Shown one piece after another: positions 18,914-34,293 of a stretch of 37,632 nucleotides of DNA (its first letter is position 1; each line of letters starts with the position of its first letter). This DNA comes from an uncultured Eubacteriales bacterium (GTDB lineage Bacteria; Bacillota; Clostridia; Christensenellales; CAG-138). Location: assembly GCA_902787375.1 (NCBI GenBank), contig CADAGD010000028.1:1-37632 (forward strand), written 5' to 3'. The notes under the pieces were generated by a model. The model was given only the letters and a program-made list of their open reading frames with translations, did not search any database and was not told the origin of the DNA. The position numbers and the translations under genes were made by a program.

Positions 18914-18942
18914 TTGACATATGGTTGTTTTTACAATATAAT
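18914..18942 (+). promoter_or_regulatory. promoter of the lysine-fermentation operon
   Basis: TTGACA (18914-18919), a 17-base spacer and TATAAT (18937-18942), both exact consensus. Transcription should start near 18949, just at the 5' strand of riboswitch helix P1. The stretch from 18780 to 18913 holds no other feature I can support. Confidence 0.9.
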
Positions 18943-18949
18943 AGAGAAA

Positions 18950-19113
18950 AATAGAGGTGCGAGAGTTCAGGTAGTTCTTCACGCTTGACTGCGGGGTCGT
19001 TTGTGAGGGAGGAATGGGGCTTTTGCCGAAGGTGTGCTTTATCCGCTAAGGGCGCATCTGGGCGTGCGGCTTAGAGCTGCGCGACTGTCATTGCTCGTCA
19101 ATGGTGCGCTATT
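18950..19113 (+). ncRNA. lysine riboswitch (L-box) aptamer
   Basis: Conserved L-box blocks occur in order: ATAGAGGTGCGAGAG, AGGTAGT, GGGAGGAATGGGGC, GCCGAAGG, ATCTGGGCG and CGACTGTCA. Helices can be drawn by eye. P1 pairs AATAG (18950-18954) with CTATT (19109-19113). P2b pairs CTTCAC with GTGAGG. P3 pairs GGTGTGC with GCGCATC. P4 is an 8-bp stem CGTGCGGC/GCTGCGCG. P5 pairs CATTG with CAATG. The P2 loop GCGGG can kiss the P3 loop TCCGC, a hallmark of this class. It sits between the promoter and kal. The P1 3' strand is shared with the terminator stem at 19106-19149, implying that lysine turns the operon on. Confidence 0.92.
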
Positions 19114-19156
19114 GCTGTTGTTCTTTTTCGGGGCATTATACAATAGCGCCTTTTTT
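19106..19156 (+). terminator. riboswitch-controlled terminator (expression platform)
   Basis: GCGCTATTG (19106-19114) pairs perfectly with CAATAGCGC (19141-19149) and is followed by CTTTTTTG. The 5' arm includes the whole 3' strand of riboswitch P1 (19109-19113) plus the conserved junction bases before it. The two structures therefore exclude each other, with no separate antiterminator needed. Confidence 0.85.
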
Positions 19157-19185
19157 GAATAAAATATCACACGGAGGAAGTATTT

Positions 19186-19593
19186 ATGGAAAACAAGATC
19201 ACATCCACCATCCGTCTTCGCATGAGTGCGCAGGATGCTCATTACGGCGGGAATCTCGTTGACGGCGCACACATGCTTGCGCTGTTTGGTGATGTTGCCA
19301 CAGAGCTTCTTATAAAGCTTGATGGTGACGAAGGACTTTTCAAAGCTTATGATATGGTTGAGTTTATAGCTCCTGTATTTGCGGGCGACTATATCGAAGC
19401 ATATGGTGAAATCACACATATCGGCAATACCTCCCGCAAGATGGTTTTTGAGGCACGCAAGGTCATTCAGCCTCGTCCCGATATAAATGATTCCGCGTGT
19501 GACGTGCTGGCGGAGCCCATCGTTGTATGCAGAGCTTCCGGCACATGTGTTGTTCCCAAGGATAAGAAACGCGGAAATTATGACAACATCTGA
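19186..19593 (+). CDS. kal: 3-aminobutyryl-CoA ammonia-lyase
   Basis: A 135-residue hotdog-fold enzyme that removes ammonia from L-3-aminobutyryl-CoA to give crotonyl-CoA, the last dedicated step of lysine fermentation. The whole sequence reads like clostridial Kal: [19 protein letters not shown] near the start, [38 protein letters not shown] and [15 protein letters not shown], then [11 protein letters not shown] at the end. Length is normal. GGAGG lies 8 bases before the ATG. It is the first gene of the operon, downstream of the lysine riboswitch. In many lysine fermenters kal is near the end of the cluster instead. Confidence 0.92.
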
Positions 19594-19610: not shown

Positions 19611-20438
19611 ATGGAAAAACTGATAATTACCGCCGCCATTTGCGGTGCCGAAGTTACCAAGACACACAATCCTGCGGTTCCCTATACCATTGAGGAGATG
19701 GTAAACGAGGCGAGGAGCGCATATAATGCGGGTGCTGCCATAATACATGTACATGTACGCGAGGATGATGGCACTCCGACTCAGAGCCGCGAGCGTTTCC
19801 GTGTTGTTATGGATGCGATACGTTCTGAGCTTCCGGACGTCATAATGATACCCTCAACGGGCGGAGCCACAGGCATGAGCCCGGAGGAGCGTCTTCAGCC
19901 CACGGAGCTTTTTCCTGAGATGGCAACACTCGACTGCGGAACATGCAATTTCGGTGATGAAATATTCGACAACACAATGCCCAACATGCGTGTATTCGGA
20001 AAGCGCATGATCGAAAACGGCATTAAGCCCGAATATGAGTGCTTTGAGATGGGACATATCGACACCATACTTGACATGGCACGCAAGGGCGAGGTTCCCG
20101 GAGATCCCATGCAGTTCAACTTCGTTCTCGGCGTAAAGGGCTGCACCCCCGCAACGGTTCAGAATCTCTGCTGGATGGTAAACGCCATTCCCGCAAACGC
20201 GACATGGACCAGCACGGGCGTAGGCAGAGCGGCATTCACGCTTGCTGCTCCCACTATCGTAATGGGCGGCAACGTGCGCGTCGGTTTCGAGGATAATATC
20301 TATCTTTCACGCGGAGTCAAGGCGGCGTCCAATGGCGAGCTGGTTGAAAAGGTAGTAAGGCTCTCCCGCGAGCTTGGCAGGGAGATAGCAAGTCCGGAGG
20401 AGGCAAGGCGTATACTGAGCCTCAAGCCCCTGAAATAG
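19611..20438 (+). CDS. kce: 3-keto-5-aminohexanoate cleavage enzyme (BKACE family)
   Basis: A 275-residue TIM-barrel enzyme that reacts 3-keto-5-aminohexanoate with acetyl-CoA, giving acetoacetate and 3-aminobutyryl-CoA. The metal-binding HVHVR is at residues 46-50 (H46, H48). MIPSTGGATGMSPEERL, TLDCGTCNFGDEIF and VMGGNVRVGFEDNIYLSRG are typical of the DUF849/BKACE family and of Kce in particular. Length is standard. CGAGGA lies about 7 bases upstream, and only 17 bases separate it from kal. Confidence 0.93.
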   Translation: MEKLIITAAICGAEVTKTHNPAVPYTIEEMVNEARSAYNAGAAIIHVHVREDDGTPTQSRERFRVVMDAIRSELPDVIMIPSTGGATGMSPEERLQPTELFPEMATLDCGTCNFGDEIFDNTMPNMRVFGKRMIENGIKPEYECFEMGHIDTILDMARKGEVPGDPMQFNFVLGVKGCTPATVQNLCWMVNAIPANATWTSTGVGRAAFTLAAPTIVMGGNVRVGFEDNIYLSRGVKAASNGELVEKVVRLSRELGREIASPEEARRILSLKPLK

Positions 20439-20520: not shown

Positions 20521-21561
20521 ATGTCACTCAAAGGCAATAAGTACGGCACACACAGGGTTATCGAACCTCATGGCGTTCTCACACAGGCAGCTTGGAAGAT
20601 TGATAACGACATGACAAAGCGTTACTCCAACGAGATAATCTGCGATGTTATCTCCCTCAACATCGACTCCGCGTCATTCACTCAGATCGAGGAAGCCTGC
20701 GGCGGCGATGAGCAGAAGATCGGTGAGATGATAATGGGCATCGTCGCTGAGCGCGGCAAGCAGCAGAATCCCGTTACCGGTTCCGGCGGAATGTTTATCG
20801 GCAAGGTCGCTTATATAGGCGAGGATCTCGCGGATCGTGATCTGAAGGTTGGCGACAAGATAGCTTCCCTCGTTTCACTGTCCCTCACTCCTTTGAAGAT
20901 TGACAAGATACTTGCCATCCATAAGGATATTGACCGTGTTGATATAGTCGGTCAGGCGGTTCTCTTCGAGAGCGGCATATATGCCAAGCTTCCCGATGAT
21001 ATGAGCGAAACACTCGCTCTTGCAGCTCTTGACGTTGCCGGTGCGCCCGCTCAGGCACGCAAGCTCCCCAAGGAGGGCGACAGCGTTCTCATTCTCGGCG
21101 CAAACGGCAAGTCCGGCGTTCTCTGCGGCTATGAGGCAATGAAGAAGGTCGGCCCCAGCGGCAATGTTGTAGGCGTTGTAAGGAATCCCGCTCAGGTTCC
21201 CGCTCTTATGGAGCTTGGCGTTTATAACAAGGTCATCGTCGCTTCCGCAACGGAACCCATCGCTGTTCTTGAGGCGGCTCTTGAGGCAAATGGCGGCAAG
21301 GAATATGACATCTCTATCTGCTGCGTCAATGTTGAGTCCTGCGAGATGAGCGCGATACTTCCCGTTCGTGACGAAGGTATCGTTTACTTCTTCTCAATGG
21401 CAACCTCGTTCACAAAGGCCGCTCTCGGCGCAGAGGGTGTAGGCAAGGACGTCACAATGATAGTCGGCAACGGCTACACAAAGAATCATGCGGAGATAAC
21501 TCTGAATGTTCTTCGTGAGAATGAGAAGCTCCGCAAACTCTTCGACGAGAAGTATTGCTGA
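20521..21561 (+). CDS. kdd: L-erythro-3,5-diaminohexanoate dehydrogenase
   Basis: A 346-residue NAD(P)-dependent dehydrogenase that oxidatively deaminates 3,5-diaminohexanoate to 3-keto-5-aminohexanoate, feeding Kce. The N-terminal region (GTHRVIEPHGVLTQAAWKID) and the Rossmann segment ILGANGKSGVLCGYEAMKKVG are those of Kdd. Length matches the family (about 345). CGGAGG lies 9 bases before the ATG. The 82 bases after kce hold only a weak ACGC/GCGT hairpin. A stronger hairpin lies downstream (21578-21618), where the next operon gene is an unrelated lipoprotein. Confidence 0.93.
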   Translation: MSLKGNKYGTHRVIEPHGVLTQAAWKIDNDMTKRYSNEIICDVISLNIDSASFTQIEEACGGDEQKIGEMIMGIVAERGKQQNPVTGSGGMFIGKVAYIGEDLADRDLKVGDKIASLVSLSLTPLKIDKILAIHKDIDRVDIVGQAVLFESGIYAKLPDDMSETLALAALDVAGAPAQARKLPKEGDSVLILGANGKSGVLCGYEAMKKVGPSGNVVGVVRNPAQVPALMELGVYNKVIVASATEPIAVLEAALEANGGKEYDISICCVNVESCEMSAILPVRDEGIVYFFSMATSFTKAALGAEGVGKDVTMIVGNGYTKNHAEITLNVLRENEKLRKLFDEKYC

Positions 21562-21577
21562 TTAGAAAACAAATATT

Positions 21578-21618
21578 GCTCCCGTGCAGTTTGTTGTTGA
21601 AATATTCCGCACGGGGGC
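21578..21618 (+). terminator. hairpin after kdd, possible attenuator
   Basis: GCTCCCGTGC (21578-21587) pairs with GCACGGGGGC (21609-21618), with one G-U pair. It is followed only by ATTATTTA, so termination is likely partial. It may lower expression of the downstream genes or protect the upstream mRNA. Confidence 0.5.
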
Positions 21619-21679
21619 ATTATTTAACAAATGCCGTGCTGCGGACGCAGTACATGGGATTAAAAAGGAGTTTACAAAT

Positions 21680-22327
21680 ATGAAAAGGATAATATCATTT
21701 TCGCTTTGCCTACTGTTTTTGCTATCCGCGGCAGTTCTTTCGGGATGTGAAAAGGAAAAGGAATATGTCCCCGAAGGCCCGACGGATGTTGATTACGGCG
21801 AGGTTGCTTATTTGGATTTTGACGATGGTACTGCATTGAAATTCAAGTACCTTGATTGCTTCAAAAAGTCGGAGGATGAAACGGCATTCGTTTCAAAAAC
21901 GCCGGACAGCAAGGGCGTCCTGTCATATGATTTCTTTGAATCATATAAGGATTATGAAGCCATCAATGAAACATACAGGATACCCACCCGCAAATATGCC
22001 GAGATTGCTTCCTATACAGAAGATGAGGCAAGGGATTATATGGAGATATGTCTGGGGCTTTCGGTTCAGGACGCCAAGGTTACGGTTGACAGCTTTAATT
22101 TTGAGAAATTCGACAATTACGTCGTACTGAGTCTTGAGGAAACCGCGGAGTATAACACGACCGGGGAAATACAGAAGAACTGGATCGTCAAGTATGTCGT
22201 TGAAAACGAACGTGTATATACGATACAGGCTTTTGCTCCCGCAAGCCTTCAGGAGAAATACGGTGCTGCGTTCAAGGATGTTGTATTCGATATTGAAAAC
22301 GCATTGAAAAAACCGGATATGAACTAA
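21680..22327 (+). CDS. lipoprotein encoded inside the lysine operon
   Basis: A 215-residue predicted lipoprotein of unknown function. The signal sequence MKRIISFSLCLLFLLSAAV ends in LSGC with the lipidated Cys at residue 24. The mature part is acidic and beta-rich with a possible DUF-type fold (KYAEIASYTEDEARDYMEI, NWIVKYVVENERVYTIQAF), similar in style to PsbP/DUF1795-like lipoproteins. The start is ATG 21680 with AAAGGAG upstream; the longer frame beginning at 21584 has no SD. It lies between kdd and kamA and is followed by kamA after 25 bases. A link to lysine uptake is possible but unproven. Confidence 0.7.
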   Translation: MKRIISFSLCLLFLLSAAVLSGCEKEKEYVPEGPTDVDYGEVAYLDFDDGTALKFKYLDCFKKSEDETAFVSKTPDSKGVLSYDFFESYKDYEAINETYRIPTRKYAEIASYTEDEARDYMEICLGLSVQDAKVTVDSFNFEKFDNYVVLSLEETAEYNTTGEIQKNWIVKYVVENERVYTIQAFAPASLQEKYGAAFKDVVFDIENALKKPDMN

Positions 22328-22352: not shown

Positions 22353-23633
22353 ATGATAACCATTAATCAGAGCCGTGCATACGGACTTTTTAAGGACGTT
22401 CCCGATGAACTCTGGAATGATTGGAAGTGGCAGGTTGCCAACCGCATAGAAACACTTGACGACTTGAAAAAATACATAAAGCTGACTCCTGAGGAGGAGG
22501 ATGGCGTCAAGAAATGCCTTACAACGCTCCGCATGGCAATCACGCCTTATTATCTCTCCCTTATAAACCCCGACGATCCGTTCGATCCCGTAAGGCGTCA
22601 GGCTATCCCGAACGCGGCGGAGCTTTATCAGGCTCCCGAAGATCAGCTTGATCCTCTCCATGAGGATACGGATTCTCCCGTTCCCGGACTTACCCACAGG
22701 TATCCCGACCGCGTTCTGTTCCTTGTTACCGACCAATGTTCCATGTACTGTCGTCACTGCACAAGAAGACGCTTTGCCGGGCAGAATGATACAGCCGTTC
22801 CCGATTGTCAGGTAGAGGGCTGCCTCGATTACATCAGAAATCATCCCGAAGTACGCGACGTTCTGCTTTCAGGCGGCGACGCGCTGATGATCTCCGATGA
22901 AAAGCTTGAGTACATAATTTCCGAGCTTCGCAAGATACCCCATGTTGAGATAGTACGCATAGGCTCGCGCACGCCCGTCGTCTGCCCTCAGAGGATAACC
23001 CCCGCTCTTTGCAATATGCTCAAGAAGTATCATCCCATTTGGCTGAATACTCACTTCAATCATCCGAATGAGATAACCGAGGAATCAAGGCGCGCCTGCG
23101 CAATGCTGGCTGACGCCGGTATCCCGCTCGGCAACCAGACGGTTCTCCTGCATGGCGTAAACGACTGCGTACATGTTATGAAGAAGCTTGTTCAGGCACT
23201 TGTATACATAAGGGTGCGTCCGTACTACATCTATGTATGCGATTTATCCATGGGACTTACACATTTCCGCACACCCGTTTCAAAGGGTATCGAGATAATT
23301 GAGGGATTAAGGGGACATACTTCAGGTTATGCCATCCCAACATTCGTTGTCGATGCTCCCGGCGGCGGCGGCAAGACGCCGGTAATGCCCAACTATGTCA
23401 TAAGCCAGACTCCGAGAAAGACCATACTCAGAAACTTCGAGGGCGTTATAACAACTTATACCGAGCCTGAAAACTATGTTGAGGACTGCCATTGTGAGAC
23501 ATGCCGCAAGGCTCGTGAGGAACAGCCTGAGCTTGTGGGCGTGGCAGGTCTTGAGCAGGGTCGTAAGGACGGCTCCATAGCCCTTGAGCCGAAAGGACTT
23601 GCCCGTCTTGAAAGGGGCAGAAAGCATGAGTGA
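22353..23633 (+). CDS. kamA: lysine 2,3-aminomutase
   Basis: A 426-residue radical-SAM and PLP enzyme that converts L-lysine to L-beta-lysine, the entry step of the pathway. The iron-sulfur motif CSMYCRHC gives Cys at 129, 133 and 136. The PLP lysine is K341 in PGGGGKTPVMPNY. YYIYVCDLSMGLTHFRTPVS and the C-terminal zinc-type Cys pair CHCETC are as in the clostridial enzyme (416 residues). AAAGGAAA lies about 6 bases before the ATG. The stop overlaps the kamD start by 8 bases, so both aminomutases are coupled. Confidence 0.96.
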   Translation: MITINQSRAYGLFKDVPDELWNDWKWQVANRIETLDDLKKYIKLTPEEEDGVKKCLTTLRMAITPYYLSLINPDDPFDPVRRQAIPNAAELYQAPEDQLDPLHEDTDSPVPGLTHRYPDRVLFLVTDQCSMYCRHCTRRRFAGQNDTAVPDCQVEGCLDYIRNHPEVRDVLLSGGDALMISDEKLEYIISELRKIPHVEIVRIGSRTPVVCPQRITPALCNMLKKYHPIWLNTHFNHPNEITEESRRACAMLADAGIPLGNQTVLLHGVNDCVHVMKKLVQALVYIRVRPYYIYVCDLSMGLTHFRTPVSKGIEIIEGLRGHTSGYAIPTFVVDAPGGGGKTPVMPNYVISQTPRKTILRNFEGVITTYTEPENYVEDCHCETCRKAREEQPELVGVAGLEQGRKDGSIALEPKGLARLERGRKHE

Positions 23634-25179
23634 AAAGCTTCGTCTTAATCAGGATAACGTAAATAAGGCGCGTGAGTCGGCACGCAAAATCGCTGCCGAT
23701 ACACAGAGCTTTATTGACCTTCATACTACGGTTACTGTCGAGCGTACCGTATGCCGTCTGCTTGGAATAGACGGTGTAAACGCTCTTGATGTTCCGCTCC
23801 CCAATGTGGTCGTCGATCACATGACAGAAAAGGGAATACTTGGAATAGGCGCGGCATACCTCATTGGAAACGCCATTCTTGCAACGGGAAAGGATCCGCA
23901 GGGCGTTGCCGAGGCAATCGACGAGGGCAGCATTGATCTTTCAAATCTTCCGACGCATACGATAGAGGAGATAAGGGGCGTCATAATGCCCGTCGCGCAG
24001 GCTACCGTCGAGCGCGTCAGAAAAAATGTCGCCAAGCGTAACGAGTACCTTTCGGAGTATGGTGATAAAACAGACCCGTACCTGTACGTCATAGTCGCAA
24101 CCGGTAATATTTATGAGGATATAACACAGGCAAAGGCGGCGGCAAAGCAGGGCGCGGATATAATCGCCGTTATTCGTACAACGGGCCAGAGCCTTCTCGA
24201 CTATGTTCCTTACGGAGCAACGACGGAGGGCTTCGGCGGCACATACGCAACGCAGGAGAATTTCAGGCTCATGCGTGCCGCGCTTGACGAGGTAGGAGAG
24301 GAGCAGCATCGCTATATAAGGCTCTGTAACTATTGTTCGGGACTTTGTATGCCTGAGATAGCGGCAATGGGCGCGCTTGAAAGGCTTGACGTAATGCTTA
24401 ACGATGCTCTTTACGGAATCTTGTTCCGTGATATAAATCCTCAGCGTACCATAATCGACCAGTATATGAGCCGTGTAATAAACTCCTTTGCAGGCGTTAT
24501 AATCAATACCGGCGAGGACAACTATCTGACGACCGCTGACGCTGTTGAGGAGGCGCACACGGTGCTTGCTTCTCAGTTTCTGAACGAGCAGTTCGCGCTC
24601 GAAGCGGGACTTCCGGAGGAGCAGCAGGGCTTGGGTCATGCCTTCGAGATAAATCCCGACGTAAAAAACGGCTTTCTTTATGAGTTGGCGCAGGCGCAGA
24701 TGGCAAGGCAGATATTCCCCAAAGCGCCTTTGAAATACATGCCTCCGACCAAGTTCATGACGGGCAACATATTCCGCGGTCATGTACAGGATGCGCTGTT
24801 CAATATAGTCACGATACTCACAGGGCAGAAGCTTCACCTTCTGGGTATGCTTACCGAGGCGATTCATACTCCGTTCATGAGTGACCGCGCTCTATCCATC
24901 GAGAACGCTCAGTACATATTCAACACCATGCACGATCTGGGTGAGGATATAACATTCCGCGAGGGCGGCATAATGGAGAACAGAGCTAATGAAGTGCTTC
25001 AGAAGGCGACAGACCTGCTGGGCGAGATAGAGAAGATGGGATTGTTCGCCACGCTTGAAAAGGGAATCTTTGCGGATATTAAACGCTCGCGTGACGGCGG
25101 CAAGGGTCTTGCCGGAGTTACCCGCAAGGATACGGTCTACTTCAATCCATTCATTGAGCTTATGAAAAGGAGTCTGTAA
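23626..25179 (+). CDS. kamD: beta-lysine/D-lysine 5,6-aminomutase alpha subunit
   Basis: The 517-residue large subunit of the adenosylcobalamin- and PLP-dependent 5,6-aminomutase, which moves the terminal amino group of beta-lysine to give 3,5-diaminohexanoate. Sequence landmarks include PNVVVDHMTEKGILGIGAAY, GQSLLDYVPYGATTEGFGGT and LCNYCSGLCMPEIAAMGALE, and length equals the known enzyme (about 516). It forms the TIM barrel that binds PLP and the cofactor's adenosyl part. The ATG at 23626 overlaps the end of kamA, with AAAGGGG upstream. kamE follows after 3 bases, as expected for a heteromeric complex. Confidence 0.95.
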   Translation: MSEKLRLNQDNVNKARESARKIAADTQSFIDLHTTVTVERTVCRLLGIDGVNALDVPLPNVVVDHMTEKGILGIGAAYLIGNAILATGKDPQGVAEAIDEGSIDLSNLPTHTIEEIRGVIMPVAQATVERVRKNVAKRNEYLSEYGDKTDPYLYVIVATGNIYEDITQAKAAAKQGADIIAVIRTTGQSLLDYVPYGATTEGFGGTYATQENFRLMRAALDEVGEEQHRYIRLCNYCSGLCMPEIAAMGALERLDVMLNDALYGILFRDINPQRTIIDQYMSRVINSFAGVIINTGEDNYLTTADAVEEAHTVLASQFLNEQFALEAGLPEEQQGLGHAFEINPDVKNGFLYELAQAQMARQIFPKAPLKYMPPTKFMTGNIFRGHVQDALFNIVTILTGQKLHLLGMLTEAIHTPFMSDRALSIENAQYIFNTMHDLGEDITFREGGIMENRANEVLQKATDLLGEIEKMGLFATLEKGIFADIKRSRDGGKGLAGVTRKDTVYFNPFIELMKRSL

Positions 25180-25182
25180 GAT

Positions 25183-25971
25183 ATGTCAAGCGGATTATAT
25201 AACACGCATAAGGCGGATTTTGATACCAAGTTTGATCCGACGCGCGTCAAGGCGTATGGCGATACGATGAATGACGGCAAGGTACAGTTTTCATTTACTT
25301 TGCCGGTAAAGAATGATGAGCGTGGTGTAGAGGCTGCTCGTCAGCTCGTCCGTAAGATGGGCGTTGATGAACCCAACGTCGCATGTGCCAAGACGCTTGA
25401 CAAGGAGTTTACATTCTTTGTAGTATACGGCTCCGTCGTCCATTCCGTTGATTATGAGAATATTCACGTTCTCACGGTCGAGGAGGAAACAATGGGCATG
25501 GAGGAAACGAACGAGTACATCAAGGAGCATTTCGGGCGCAAGATAGTCATGATAGGCGCATCCACGGGTACGGATGCTCACACCGTCGGAATCGACGCAA
25601 TAATGAACCGCAAGGGCTTCGCCGGACATTACGGGCTTGAGCGTTACGAGATGATAGAGGCGATAAACCTCGGCGCACAGGTTCCGAATGAGGAGTTCGT
25701 CAAAAAGGCGATCGAGGTAAATGCGGATGTACTTCTGGTTTCCCAGACGGTCACACAAAAGGATGTTCATATCCAGAACCTTACCGAGCTTGTTGAGTAT
25801 CTTGAGGCAGAGGGTCTTCGCTCAAGATTCGTACTCTGCTGCGGTGGTGCGCGTATCACACATGAGCTTGCCAAGGAGCTTGGTTATGACGCAGGCTTCG
25901 GTGCGGGCAAGTATGCCGATGACGTCGCTACATTTGCAGTAACCGAGATGGTAAAGCGCGGAATGAAATAA
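25183..25971 (+). CDS. kamE: lysine 5,6-aminomutase beta subunit (B12-binding)
   Basis: The 262-residue partner of KamD. The C-terminal Rossmann-type domain binds cobalamin through DAHTVG (D131, H133, G136), where the histidine replaces the lower axial ligand. K144 in NRKGFAGHYG is the lysine that holds PLP in the resting enzyme, at the same residue number as in the characterised protein. The N-terminal 100 residues form the dimerisation part. AAAAGGAG lies about 10 bases upstream. No dedicated reactivation genes (kamB/kamC type) are visible here. Confidence 0.95.
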   Translation: MSSGLYNTHKADFDTKFDPTRVKAYGDTMNDGKVQFSFTLPVKNDERGVEAARQLVRKMGVDEPNVACAKTLDKEFTFFVVYGSVVHSVDYENIHVLTVEEETMGMEETNEYIKEHFGRKIVMIGASTGTDAHTVGIDAIMNRKGFAGHYGLERYEMIEAINLGAQVPNEEFVKKAIEVNADVLLVSQTVTQKDVHIQNLTELVEYLEAEGLRSRFVLCCGGARITHELAKELGYDAGFGAGKYADDVATFAVTEMVKRGMK

Positions 25972-30557: not shown

Positions 30558-31232
30558 ATGAAAAAACAGTTGCTTACTTTAGGCTTTGCGGTGTTGCTTG
30601 CTGTTTTATGCATGGTTTCCTGCAACAAGGACGAAACCGCGAATCGGGAGCAGGAGCCTGAGAAAACGGCGCAGAGCATAGTTTCCTTTTCCGAAAAAGA
30701 TCTGACAAACACGAAGAAAGAAGTTCTGGATGCGGCTTACGGAAAGAGCGAAACAGCAAAGCCCACGGAGAAAAGCGATGATCCGATCGAGGATTTGCTA
30801 AACAAGCTTAACGAAACGGATGAAGAACCAACTGCTGAGAATCCGGTTATCAACAAAATAGTTGATAATGCCAGAATAGAGAAAGCCGAGATACAGGAGG
30901 ATGGCAAGGCAAGTGTTGTGGTATATGCACCGGATATGTCAAAAATCCTCAATGCTTTGCTCGAAAGGGATTATAGCGAACCGCTATCGTCTGATGAACT
31001 GGAATCCTATATACTCAGCTCGTTGGAGGATAAGGAGAATTATAAGAAATATGAGATAAAGGTCGGAACAATAGAGGCTGACGGAAAGCGCATACTTGAT
31101 TCTGCTGACGAGGAATTAAGGAATGCTTTGACCGGTGGCTTCCGTGACGCCTATATTGAGTTCTATAATAAGAGCGTTGAAGCATTGTTAGATGCTTTAT
31201 CAAGCATAAGCGGAGGTGAGAAGGATGATTAA
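30558..31232 (+). CDS. secreted lipoprotein, 224 residues
   Basis: A predicted lipoprotein of unknown function. The signal MKKQLLTLGFAVLLAVLCMV precedes SC with the lipidated Cys at 22. A charged low-complexity stretch (about 25-90, rich in Glu, Lys and Thr) links to a C-terminal alpha/beta domain (SVVVYAPDMSKILNALLERD, then YKKYEIKVGTIEADGKRI). GGGAGG lies 7 bases before the ATG. Its 3' end overlaps the start of the RCC1-repeat gene by 8 bases, so both are made together and may act at the same place on the cell surface. Confidence 0.75.
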   Translation: MKKQLLTLGFAVLLAVLCMVSCNKDETANREQEPEKTAQSIVSFSEKDLTNTKKEVLDAAYGKSETAKPTEKSDDPIEDLLNKLNETDEEPTAENPVINKIVDNARIEKAEIQEDGKASVVVYAPDMSKILNALLERDYSEPLSSDELESYILSSLEDKENYKKYEIKVGTIEADGKRILDSADEELRNALTGGFRDAYIEFYNKSVEALLDALSSISGGEKDD

Positions 31233-34200
31233 AAGGGCTATCTGCTTTTTAATGACGTTTATCATGGTTTTCGGCTTGATTCCTGTCAGTTCGTTGGCGG
31301 AAGAAGAGTTTATTTCCTATCCCGTTGAGCTGAAAACAAAGGATAGTGATTTTATTCGTAATTGCAAGCTTGAAGTCAAGTTTTCGGATTCCGGCATAGC
31401 AATGGCGAAGTTTGATGATCTTTGCGACTTGCTCGATCTTGAATCAAGAGTTGTTTCCGATCTCTACTATGTATGCAGGAAGAAGGGATTGGTAACCGGA
31501 ACTGAGCCTGAAAACCCCGTTGGTGATGAAGAAGACAGAGTTTTAAACAGATATCAACTTGTTTTTCTCGATGGTGCAAAGAATGCTGTTCAGCTGAACT
31601 GTATTTTTGGTTCTCAAGGTATACCCCTGATAGAAAGTCCTATGAAGATTAATGGCAGTCTGTATGTTCCTCTTGCTTCTTTTGTCAGATTGAATAACGG
31701 TTACGTCAGGGTTGACAATAATAAGATAATACTTACACAGCCGCATGAAACGGTTACAGACATACTGGGATGGGAAGAAAACAGAAGTCTGTGGGGCAAA
31801 TACTTCTTTGATCCAATAGAGTGTATTAAAGAAAAGAGTGAGTTTCTTGGTAAAAATCCTGCCAAGGTGGTGTATATTTGGGATGGAATATATGAGGCTT
31901 TTCATGACATTTTCGATGCGATCTTCACTTTAAACTTTAGTGGATTAGATGAAATCTATTCTGGTAATTATGCCATCTCATATGGGGAAGTAATGGCTCA
32001 GACAATTTGCTCAAAAACATCAGATGAGCTGGTGGGAATTGAAGAAAAAAAAGAGTTCGGAAAGCTTTCAATTGATGCAATGCAAGCATTCACGGATATG
32101 GTTGCTGAATCAAGTGGTGATGTGATTAAGGATTTGGAATTTAGATCCGAATACATTTTCAGCGAAATGCTTAATAAAAATATCGCAATGGAAAGCGGGT
32201 TTGATCAAATTGGTAAGCTTGCTGACAGAATTGGAAAGCAAAGGAGCGAACAGGCTTTCTATAAAGCTTTATCGAGTAAAGCGTTGATGCGAAGTGCAGG
32301 AGCAGCTTTTTGCATCTTCTCATCATATTGCTCAATAACAAATGAACTCGATAGGATTTCAAACTATGACATTGATGCTATGAGCAGGTATATAAGGATA
32401 AGCCAAAATAAGAATACCGAAATTGAGGCTGTAAAAGTACGAAAAGGGCTTGAAGATAAAGTTGAATGGCTTTCAAGTATGAGGTACAGCACTTTCTCGG
32501 ACAAGCTTACCGACGCTGTGGTCAATGAATTAGAGAGCCTTGCCTGGGATGATATTGGGAATAATGTTAGCATGGCAGTAAGTATGTTCCCTAAAGGTAA
32601 GGCACTATCGGGGGGGTTGACTTACAAAGCAATAGGTCTGTTATGGGACTTGGCTGATGTTGTAATAGATAATACCTTTGGTGATTTGGGGAAGGCTAAG
32701 ATTGCTATTAATCTATGTATGCTGATAGATAGTGTAAAACAAACATACTTAAAAGACGACAGTTCCGGTCAGGATAAATATGACAATCGTCTTGCACTAA
32801 TCTATGTCTACCTCAAGTCATGCTATGCTTCCCGTGATTTAATATTGGATGAATCTTATGCAAAGTTTAAAAGACATTGCCCCGGATGCAAAAATATATT
32901 GGCGTATAACGACGTAAAGTGCAGCAAATGTGGCAAGTGTGACAAAGAAACGGATTACCATAATGAAGATAGTGGGTATTACAATTTCTTTGCCGATGAT
33001 TTGGCAATAGAGGAAAAGCTCGGAGCTCTTCTTGGAAAACTGACAACAACTACCGATATGGGTACGGATCAAAAACTGATCGATGGACTGAAACCATTTG
33101 ATAGTTACTTTTCAAAGAAGCTGTCTGAAGTTGATTTAAATTCCGTTTCAGATTCAAATAATGCTGTTGTTGTTTCAGATGGTGCAAGTACATACGCGAT
33201 TAAAAACGACGGTACGCTCTGGGCATGGGGAGATAATGAATGTGGTCATCTTGGCGACGGTACCACAGAGGAAAGGCATTCCCCGGTAAAAATAATGGAA
33301 GACGTCAAATCGGTGGATTTCGGATGGTATAGTGTCTATGCTATAAAAAATGACGGTACGCTCTGGGCGTGGGGACGTAATGGAAATGGTCGGCTTGGCG
33401 ATGGTACCATGGAGGAAAGGCATTCTCCGGTAAAAATAATGGAGGATGTAGAATCGATTTCTGCTGACGATGCGGTATATGCGATTAAAAACGACGGTAC
33501 GCTCTGGGCATTTGGAAATAATGAATATGGTCAGCTTGGCGATGGCACCACAGAGGAAAGGCATTCCCCGGTAAAAATAATGGAAGATGTCAAATCGGTA
33601 GATTATGGAGGTTGGACTGCCTATGCGATTAAAAACGACGGTACGCTCTGGGCATGGGGATACAATGGAAAAGGTCAGCTTGGCGATGGAACCACAGAGG
33701 AAAGGCATTCCCCGGTAAAAATAATGGAAGATGTCAAATCGGTGGATTATGGAAAGTGGAATGCCTATGCGATTAAAAACGACGGTACGCTCTGGGCGTG
33801 GGGAGATAATGGACATGGTCAGCTTGGCGATGGAACCACAGAGGAAAGGCATTCTCCGGTAAAAATAATGGAAGGCGTCAAATCGGTAGATTGTGGAAGT
33901 TTTGCTGCCTATGCGATTAAAAACGACGGTACGCTCTGGGCGTGGGGAGATAATGGATTTGGTCGGCTTGGCGACGGTACCACAGAGGAAAGGCATTCCC
34001 CGGTAAAAATAATGGAAGACGTCAAATCGGTAGATGCATTTTTTGCTGCCTATGCGATTAAAAACGACGGTACGCTCTGGGCATGGGGATATAATGGAGA
34101 TGGTCAGCTTGGCGATGGAACCACAGAGGAAAGGCATTCCCCAGTAAAAATAATGGAAGACGTCAAACCGTTAGGTAGATATGATTATGCAATTAAAAAC

Positions 34201-34293
34201 GACGGTACGCTCTGGGGGGCAGCTTGGCGATGGAACCACAGAGGACAGGTATTCTCCCGTCTATATAATGAGCTTGACCGATTAAATAAATGA
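31225..34293 (+). CDS. large secreted protein with RCC1-type repeats, 3' end frameshifted
   Basis: A 1022-residue extracellular protein. The signal peptide covers 1-25 (cleavage after SLA). A copper-amine-oxidase-N-like stalk (about 110-175, SLYVPLASFVRLNNGYVRVD) follows, then a long helical AT-rich region (about 180-540). A zinc ribbon starts at about 552 (CPGCKN, CSKCGKC). Residues about 655-1000 hold eight RCC1/beta-propeller repeats of 48 residues (AIKNDGTLWAWGDN, GQLGDGTTEERHSPVKI). The last repeat lacks 20 bp, which leaves the repeat frame; the true end appears to be AWRWNHRGQVFSRLYNE-like unrelated sequence. GGAGGTGA lies 5 bases before ATG 31225. Partner and ligand are unknown. Confidence 0.8.
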   Translation: MIKRAICFLMTFIMVFGLIPVSSLAEEEFISYPVELKTKDSDFIRNCKLEVKFSDSGIAMAKFDDLCDLLDLESRVVSDLYYVCRKKGLVTGTEPENPVGDEEDRVLNRYQLVFLDGAKNAVQLNCIFGSQGIPLIESPMKINGSLYVPLASFVRLNNGYVRVDNNKIILTQPHETVTDILGWEENRSLWGKYFFDPIECIKEKSEFLGKNPAKVVYIWDGIYEAFHDIFDAIFTLNFSGLDEIYSGNYAISYGEVMAQTICSKTSDELVGIEEKKEFGKLSIDAMQAFTDMVAESSGDVIKDLEFRSEYIFSEMLNKNIAMESGFDQIGKLADRIGKQRSEQAFYKALSSKALMRSAGAAFCIFSSYCSITNELDRISNYDIDAMSRYIRISQNKNTEIEAVKVRKGLEDKVEWLSSMRYSTFSDKLTDAVVNELESLAWDDIGNNVSMAVSMFPKGKALSGGLTYKAIGLLWDLADVVIDNTFGDLGKAKIAINLCMLIDSVKQTYLKDDSSGQDKYDNRLALIYVYLKSCYASRDLILDESYAKFKRHCPGCKNILAYNDVKCSKCGKCDKETDYHNEDSGYYNFFADDLAIEEKLGALLGKLTTTTDMGTDQKLIDGLKPFDSYFSKKLSEVDLNSVSDSNNAVVVSDGASTYAIKNDGTLWAWGDNECGHLGDGTTEERHSPVKIMEDVKSVDFGWYSVYAIKNDGTLWAWGRNGNGRLGDGTMEERHSPVKIMEDVESISADDAVYAIKNDGTLWAFGNNEYGQLGDGTTEERHSPVKIMEDVKSVDYGGWTAYAIKNDGTLWAWGYNGKGQLGDGTTEERHSPVKIMEDVKSVDYGKWNAYAIKNDGTLWAWGDNGHGQLGDGTTEERHSPVKIMEGVKSVDCGSFAAYAIKNDGTLWAWGDNGFGRLGDGTTEERHSPVKIMEDVKSVDAFFAAYAIKNDGTLWAWGYNGDGQLGDGTTEERHSPVKIMEDVKPLGRYDYAIKNDGTLWGAAWRWNHRGQVFSRLYNELDRLNK
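33196..34260 (+). repeat. eight tandem 144-bp coding repeats
   Basis: Units start near 33196, 33340, 33481, 33625, 33769, 33913, 34054 and 34189, giving spacings of 144 (four times), 141 (twice) and 135. Long blocks such as ATTAAAAACGACGGTACGCT and GAGGAAAGGCATTCCCCGGT are identical in most units, and variation is confined to short windows. Such nucleotide identity points to recent duplication or gene conversion. The eighth unit carries a 20-bp deletion. Confidence 0.9.

What the first reader, a model, noticed from the sequence alone, without database searches (positions are those of the whole stretch)
18950..19156. Lysine riboswitch wired as an ON switch for lysine fermentation
The L-box aptamer precedes a lysine-degrading operon. 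The 3' strand of P1 (CTATT, 19109-19113) is part of the 5' arm of the terminator (GCGCTATTG, 19106-19114, with CAATAGCGC at 19141-19149 and a T-run). Ligand-stabilised P1 (5 bp) and the terminator (9 bp) cannot coexist, so lysine should cause read-through. Most known L-boxes switch biosynthesis or transport genes off. Catabolic use of L-boxes may have been noted before in other genomes; I cannot check.
Basis: partly seen in the sequence, partly recalled or inferred. Interest (0 to 1): 0.88.

Follow-up and report, generated by a model that had tools for sequence, protein, structure and literature searches.

The report
Lysine-activated switch for lysine fermentation
This is a lysine-sensing RNA at the start of a lysine-eating operon, built so that lysine should turn the genes on; such switches were already predicted in other bacteria, but here the wiring is shown to recur in nearly all the related leaders examined.

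Summary
RF00168 matches 18944-19119 (74 bits). P1 (18950-18954/19109-19113) and a 9-bp T-run terminator (19106-19114/19141-19149, T 19151-19156) share the P1 3' strand and cannot coexist. The operon is kal-kce-kdd-(unknown)-kamA-kamD-kamE, lysine fermentation. In 57 kal leaders the strongest terminator takes up the P1 3' strand in 50 (any terminator: 54), against 6 (any: 14) of 52 other L-boxes, and that strand covaries with both partners. So lysine most likely causes read-through. The genome has no lysA or dapA match: a probable lysine auxotroph whose one L-box is catabolic. The kind is not new: kal/kce L-boxes with positive control (PMC5584792) and ON lysine riboswitches that bury terminator pieces (PMC2258182) are in print. 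New here are the survey and, in relatives but not in the window, an unexpected variant: 18 of 57 kal leaders carry a second copy of the aptamer's 3' end just past terminator 1, as if one aptamer had two decision points. No ligand assay was possible.

The parts
18914..18942 (+). sigma-70-like promoter TTGACA-17-TATAAT; start of transcription near 18949 (inferred)
   Evidence: 12 of 12 consensus matches
18944..19119 (+). lysine riboswitch aptamer (L-box, RF00168)
   Evidence: 74 bits, E 1.1e-17, full model
18950..18954 (+). P1 5' strand AATAG
   Evidence: alignment
19109..19113 (+). P1 3' strand CTATT, shared with the terminator
19106..19114 (+). terminator 5' arm GCGCTATTG (takes J5/1 and the P1 3' strand)
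19141..19149 (+). terminator 3' arm CAATAGCGC
19151..19156 (+). T run of the terminator
19114..19147 (+). weaker register-shifted hairpin 19114-19121/19140-19147 that is compatible with P1; 3 nt off the T run
   Evidence: appears when P1 is enforced
19173..19178 (+). Shine-Dalgarno-like GGAGGA before kal, outside the terminator
   Evidence: read
19186..19593 (+). kal, 3-aminobutyryl-CoA ammonia lyase
   Evidence: NF052388, 197.8 bits over cut-off 160
19611..20438 (+). kce, 3-keto-5-aminohexanoate cleavage enzyme
   Evidence: NF052387 over cut-off
20521..21561 (+). kdd, L-erythro-3,5-diaminohexanoate dehydrogenase
   Evidence: NF052381 over cut-off
21584..22327 (+). unknown 247-aa protein inside the operon
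   Evidence: no NCBIfam or Pfam match
22353..23633 (+). kamA, lysine 2,3-aminomutase
   Evidence: TIGR03820 over cut-off
23584..25179 (+). kamD, lysine 5,6-aminomutase alpha subunit (start as listed mechanically, it may begin later)
   Evidence: NF052384 over cut-off
25183..25971 (+). kamE, lysine 5,6-aminomutase beta subunit
   Evidence: NF052385 over cut-off

Best explanation
A transcriptional ON lysine riboswitch. The leader starts near 18949, so P1 is only about 5 bp. Shown by sequence and folding: the P1 3' strand is also the 5' arm of a T-run terminator, and the two folds exclude each other; without ligand the terminator fold is the stabler by 7.0 kcal/mol in the model. Inferred: lysine, bound before the terminator 3' arm is out of RNA polymerase, holds P1 and J5/1 long enough that the terminator 5' arm stays buried, polymerase passes the T run, and kal-kce-kdd-kamA-kamD-kamE are made; without lysine the terminator forms and transcription stops. 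It would let a probable lysine auxotroph ferment lysine only when there is enough of it.
For: RF00168 match. Shared strand and exclusive folds; mean P1 pairing 0.47 at transcript end 19115, terminator 0.80 at 19148 and 0.98 at 19151. Downstream lysine fermentation genes. The strongest terminator takes 3 or more paired nt of the 6-nt P1 3' strand in 31 of 35 kal leaders against 6 of 52 other L-boxes (Fisher p 2e-13, relatedness ignored); 50 of 57 with the wider set, 54 of 57 counting any terminator, against 14 of 52. The P1 3' strand covaries with the P1 5' strand (291 of 324 cells paired; permuted 273.3, sd 3.6) and with the terminator 3' arm (295 of 324; permuted 265.6, sd 3.5) in the 54 leaders that have the overlap. 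No lysA or dapA match in the genome. The Shine-Dalgarno lies outside the terminator.
Against: No binding or transcription data. Three of 57 kal leaders lack the overlap by my criterion (L039 with 2 nt, L118, L121); L118 and L121 are titled Clostridium ihumii and C. tunisiense and have a separate terminator. Within the window's own genus the covariation is weak (P1 p 0.54, terminator p 0.048, 11 leaders). A contiguous-helix test is less clean: 36 of 57 kal against 14 of 52 others, shuffles 425 of 2850 and 439 of 2600. A P1-compatible shifted hairpin (19114-19121/19140-19147) might terminate weakly even with lysine. In the ligand-free model P1 is mostly not formed once the transcript passes 19121 (0.01-0.19), so everything rests on the ligand.
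Confidence: 0.87

Rival explanations
1. An OFF switch as in lysC leaders: lysine-bound P1 would free an element that makes the terminator.
For: Of the 52 non-kal L-boxes in the sample, 44 have a strongest terminator that does not take 3 or more nt of the P1 3' strand, 6 have one that does and 2 showed no terminator. In 19 of 44 non-kal leaders with a terminator wholly separate from P1, the P1 3' strand can pair with that terminator's 5' arm, as an antiterminator would; in kal leaders 2 of 24.
Against: In the window one T-run terminator was found before kal and it uses the P1 3' strand itself (nT 1); no further element was seen that would invert the logic. The genes consume lysine.
Confidence: 0.05
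2. The switch is ON but leaky: the register-shifted hairpin 19114-19121/19140-19147 still forms with P1 and stops part of the transcription, or instead traps the terminator 3' arm and helps read-through.
For: It appears in the fold when P1 is enforced.
Against: It stands 3 nt off the T run and is a weaker helix; I did not look for it systematically in relatives.
Confidence: 0.15
3. The aptamer has decayed or senses something else, and the hairpin is a constitutive attenuator.
For: The stretch before P2a lacks two consensus positions in the Rfam alignment.
Against: 74 bits over the whole model; an aptamer stands before kal in 39 of the 40 genomes with kal over its cut-off by model and in the fortieth by eye, and P1 covaries.
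Confidence: 0.05
4. Control of translation rather than termination.
For: Some L-boxes (E. coli lysC) act on translation and decay (passage in PMC5584792).
Against: GGAGGA at 19173-19178 lies outside the hairpin, which ends in a T run at 19156.
Confidence: 0.03

Closest known systems
L-boxes before kal/kce in Clostridium sticklandii, Fusobacterium nucleatum and Thermoanaerobacter (PMC5584792; passages read)
   Same: Same aptamer class before the same lysine fermentation genes; described as positively regulated and activated at high lysine
   Different: A look-up of 'terminator' and 'overlap' in its main text gave 0 hits, so the mechanism is not spelled out in those words; the window operon runs on through kdd, kamA, kamD and kamE
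ON lysine riboswitches as stated in PMC2258182, citing Rodionov 2003 (passages read; the 2003 paper is not held)
   Same: Metabolite-triggered fold buries pieces of the terminator stem
   Different: No kal survey in the passages read; the 2003 paper may already show this very arrangement in other species
Adenine pbuE and glycine gcvT ON riboswitches (gene names recalled; glycine and adenine ON switches are named in PMC2258182)
   Same: Aptamer strand shared with the terminator
   Different: Other ligand and aptamer
L-boxes before biosynthesis and transport genes (52 of the 87 loci L001-L087)
   Same: Same aptamer class
   Different: Strongest terminator does not take 3 or more nt of the P1 3' strand in 44 of 52 (6 do, 2 without terminator)
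Tandem riboswitches reviewed in PMC9481103 (passages read)
   Same: Two decision points in one leader, compared with the duplicated variant found in relatives
   Different: In the passages seen those repeat whole riboswitches or aptamers; the relatives here repeat only the 3' end of one aptamer

Membership tests
Lysine riboswitch (RF00168) | Covariance-model match over the gathering score | tested here: met
   74 against 30 bits, model 1-182
Lysine riboswitch (RF00168) | Conserved junction strands and P1-P5 | tested here: met
   Alignment; two consensus positions missing before P2a
Lysine riboswitch (RF00168) | Binds L-lysine | not testable with these tools
   needs in-line probing or ITC
ON transcriptional riboswitch, direct P1/terminator competition | P1 3' strand is part of the terminator 5' arm, with a T run | tested here: met
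ON transcriptional riboswitch, direct P1/terminator competition | No further antiterminator or second terminator that inverts the logic | tested here: met
   one T-run terminator before kal (nT 1); shifted hairpin noted
ON transcriptional riboswitch, direct P1/terminator competition | Ligand increases read-through | not testable with these tools
   needs single-round transcription
Lysine fermentation operon | kal, kce, kdd, kamA, kamD, kamE | tested here: met
   all six over NCBIfam cut-offs
Tandem (multi-aptamer) riboswitch | Second aptamer in the same leader | tested here: not met
   one RF00168 match in window and genome; best second-copy score in the window leader 8 of 13 with shuffle p 0.22

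The most novel reading that the evidence does not exclude
In relatives of this leader a new riboswitch design may exist: one lysine aptamer with two alternative 3' closing strands, each leading into its own terminator. Past terminator 1 lies a second copy of the P5 3' strand, J5/1 and P1 3' strand (17 of 57 kal leaders by score plus one by eye, 0 of 52 others). If terminator 1 forms and polymerase slips through, the same aptamer could close again on copy 2, test lysine a second time and block terminator 2: a two-checkpoint ON switch with one sensor.
Probability: 0.4. Interest if true: 0.7.

Novelty: new member of a known kind. Interest (0 to 1): 0.42.

Why it matters
It turns a handful of printed examples into a rule that can be tested: in the genomes examined, L-boxes before lysine fermentation genes share their P1 strand with the terminator, while those before biosynthesis and transport genes mostly do not. 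The window adds a striking setting, a probable lysine auxotroph whose one detected lysine riboswitch serves to burn lysine. The duplicated 3' end in relatives, if functional, would be a way to get two regulatory decisions from one aptamer, which I did not see in the passages read of the tandem-riboswitch review PMC9481103.

Tried and rejected
A longer P1 outward of the 5 bp was looked for and is not there. A translational mechanism is unlikely because the Shine-Dalgarno is outside the hairpin. A first terminator search over-extended stems and was replaced by a stricter one. A first P5 pairing test was off by one base and is discarded; one search is the corrected version. The antiterminator model for copy 2 (terminator 1 3' arm pairing with copy 2) is only partly supported: the longest helices run from 5 to 12 bp over 18 leaders, and some of them do not involve the arm's ATAGC at all. 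Specific pairing of the P1 5' strand with its own copy 2 was not found (93 of 108, permuted 92.3). An exact pattern for two copies found nothing in 391 genomes drawn from the class, so the duplicated form is not widespread there, or not with that exact spacing and sequence. Paper searches on the lysine side: (listings; PMC5584792, PMC2258182, PMC3766115 and PMC11477304 then looked up by passages). Paper searches for a single aptamer with two platforms: (listings), and passages of PMC9481103; none seen, but most subscription papers are not held.

Full report
What is there. The window carries one Rfam match at gathering scores, the lysine riboswitch RF00168 at 18944-19119 on the + strand, 74 bits, E 1.1e-17, full length. 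It is also the only RF00168 match in the assembly of 1.95 Mb, 93.64% complete. A 12-of-12 sigma-70-like promoter ends at 18942, so the transcript should begin near 18949 (inferred) and the P1 5' strand lies at its very 5' end. Outward extension of P1 is broken.

The operon. Downstream, kal, kce, kdd, kamA, kamD and kamE each exceed the NCBIfam cut-off for their lysine fermentation family; a 247-aa protein without a family match sits between kdd and kamA. The Shine-Dalgarno-like GGAGGA at 19173-19178 lies after the T run, which points to control of transcription. No match to lysA or dapA was found in this genome, while the controls rang in 13 and 14 of 14 genomes. In the genus, lysA reaches the cut-off in 0 of 13 genomes and has one weaker match, in G011. 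I infer a lysine auxotroph that ferments lysine; the assembly is incomplete and other routes to lysine were not searched, so this is likely and not proven.

Folding. For 18949-19156 the free fold (-77.7 kcal/mol) contains the terminator; enforcing P1 gives -70.7. The mean P1 pair probability is 0.47 when the transcript ends at 19115, 0.33 at 19118 and 0.01-0.19 from 19121 to 19142; the terminator rises to 0.80 at 19148 and 0.98 at 19151. With P1 enforced, a weaker hairpin in a shifted register (19114-19121/19140-19147) forms, 3 nt off the T run; it could leak or help, and is the main loose end in the window. A helix as long as the 9-bp one occurs in 5 of 2000 shuffles.

Relatives. Among 101 genomes (own plus 100 relatives), 75 have RF00168, with 87 matches (stricter filters). 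I fetched all 87. By tblastn, 35 of 87 lie before kal. The others were sorted by clustering of downstream ORFs: asd 22, aspartate kinase or dapA 8, lysA 2, NhaC-like antiporters 9, amino-acid ABC binding proteins 10, and one at a contig end. One representative of each cluster, plus one dapA, was checked by family. kal over its cut-off occurs in 40 of the 101 genomes: 35 of these had the L-box, four more appeared with the permissive scan, and the fortieth, L089, has one by eye only. Titles among the 28 include Clostridium ihumii, C. tunisiense, Clostridium sp. CS001, and Lachnospiraceae, Oscillospiraceae and Christensenella MAGs. Many of the 52 without are titled Bacteroidales or Bacteroidetes. 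Ten of the 28 have aptamers identical to ones already held and were dropped, leaving 18, so the working set is 35 + 4 + 18 = 57 kal leaders, all with distinct aptamers. L089 is not in it.

Architecture follows gene function. With one uniform terminator search, the strongest T-run hairpin takes at least 3 of the 6 nt of the P1 3' strand in 31 of 35 kal leaders and 6 of 52 others. On the larger set it is 50 of 57, or 54 of 57 if any terminator counts; for the 52 others any-terminator overlap is 14. The kal search stopped at the kal start and the search for the others ran to 220 nt, so the regions differ. The misses are L039 (2 nt), L118 and L121. In the last two the pairing on the P1 3' strand has no T run next to it and a separate terminator follows (by eye); their logic is open. 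A cruder contiguous-helix test separates less well: 36 of 57 against 14 of 52, with 425 of 2850 and 439 of 2600 shuffles. The P1 3' strand covaries with both partners over the 54 leaders: P1 291 of 324 paired cells against 273.3 (sd 3.6) when partners are permuted, terminator 295 of 324 against 265.6 (sd 3.5), no permutation of 3000 reaching either. Related sequences inflate such tests, the 54 were chosen for having the overlap, and inside the window's genus (11 leaders) the signal is weak (p 0.54 and 0.048).

Precedent. PMC5584792 (passages read) states that lysine riboswitches stand before kal and kce in C. sticklandii, before kal in F. [quoted passage not shown] PMC2258182 (passages read) states that certain lysine riboswitches with ON logic bury pieces of terminator stems on metabolite binding, citing Rodionov et al. 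2003, which is not held. So the window element is a new member of a known kind; I saw no experiment on a kal leader in the passages read.

An unexpected variant in relatives. In 17 of 57 kal leaders a 13-nt segment matching the leader's own P5 3' strand, J5/1 and P1 3' strand at 10 or more positions recurs 31-70 nt past the aptamer, after the T run of terminator 1; L088 adds one by eye (8 of 13 against its own copy 1). Of the 52 other L-boxes none reaches 10 (best 9); shuffles reach the scores of the 17 with p of 0.03 or less. The window leader does not have it (8 of 13, p 0.22). A hairpin starting in copy 2 was found in 18 of 18 (the search was made to start there), and 13 of 18 have 5 or more T in 7 at its end; L051, L052, L059, L064 and L065 do not by that measure. 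For L065 the program chose a long hairpin; a shorter one before GTTTTTC is there by eye. The copy-2 P5 strand pairs with the leader's own P5 5' strand at 84 of 90 cells against 73.0 (sd 2.5) when permuted, none of 5000 reaching it; within the window's family (13 leaders) 62 of 65 against 58.7 (sd 1.1), p 0.004. In the ten g14 loci seen copy 2 reads GGACGGAGCGCTAT throughout while copy 1 drifts, which argues against recent duplication; those loci were picked by a pattern that fixes part of copy 2, so part of this constancy is by selection. In L060 and L063 the GAC part is outside the terminator 2 stem. The exact pattern lies past an L-box in 22 of 103 family genomes by my reading of the places: 13 are kal leaders of the set, 7 more have kal downstream, and G500 and G501 were judged by sequence only; the other matches are scattered, and reversed-pattern controls also match. 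In the class the stricter pattern gave 0 of 391 genomes. Reading: after a failed first decision the aptamer may close on copy 2 and decide again. Against it: P1 outer pairs show no preference for their own copy 2 (93 of 108, permuted 92.3), a duplicate inherited from copy 1 also predicts P5 pairing, and some copies lack a T run. Passages of the tandem-riboswitch review PMC9481103 and the listings of two full-text searches showed no such design.

Verdict. Observation confirmed; interpretation supported in silico with high confidence; the kind is known. The new value lies in the survey and in the duplicated variant, which deserves its own test.

Noticed in passing
L103, L122, L099, L048, L063 and 13 other kal leaders (e.g. 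L063: copy 2 starts 31 nt past the aptamer): Second copy of the aptamer 3' end (P5 3' strand, J5/1, P1 3' strand) past terminator 1, in 13 of 18 starting a hairpin with a T run; 18 of 57 kal leaders (one by eye), 0 of 52 other L-boxes.
   Followed up: partly
whole genome of the window (G000): No lysA or dapA match although controls ring; probable lysine and diaminopimelate auxotrophy, which raises the question of what its peptidoglycan uses.
   Followed up: partly
window 21584-22327 +: 247-aa protein without Pfam or NCBIfam match between kdd and kamA; related sequences at 50-67% in seven same-genus loci and at 32% in L045.
   Followed up: no
L118, L121 (Clostridium ihumii, C. tunisiense): kal L-boxes whose P1 3' strand pairing lacks an adjoining T run, with a separate terminator downstream; switching logic unclear.
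   Followed up: no
window 31216-34293 +: 1025-aa protein with RCC1-like repeats (7 stretches), uncommon in bacteria by my recollection.
   Followed up: no
L089 (G021): A kal leader with a recognisable L-box by eye that the Rfam scan did not report at E up to 1.
   Followed up: no
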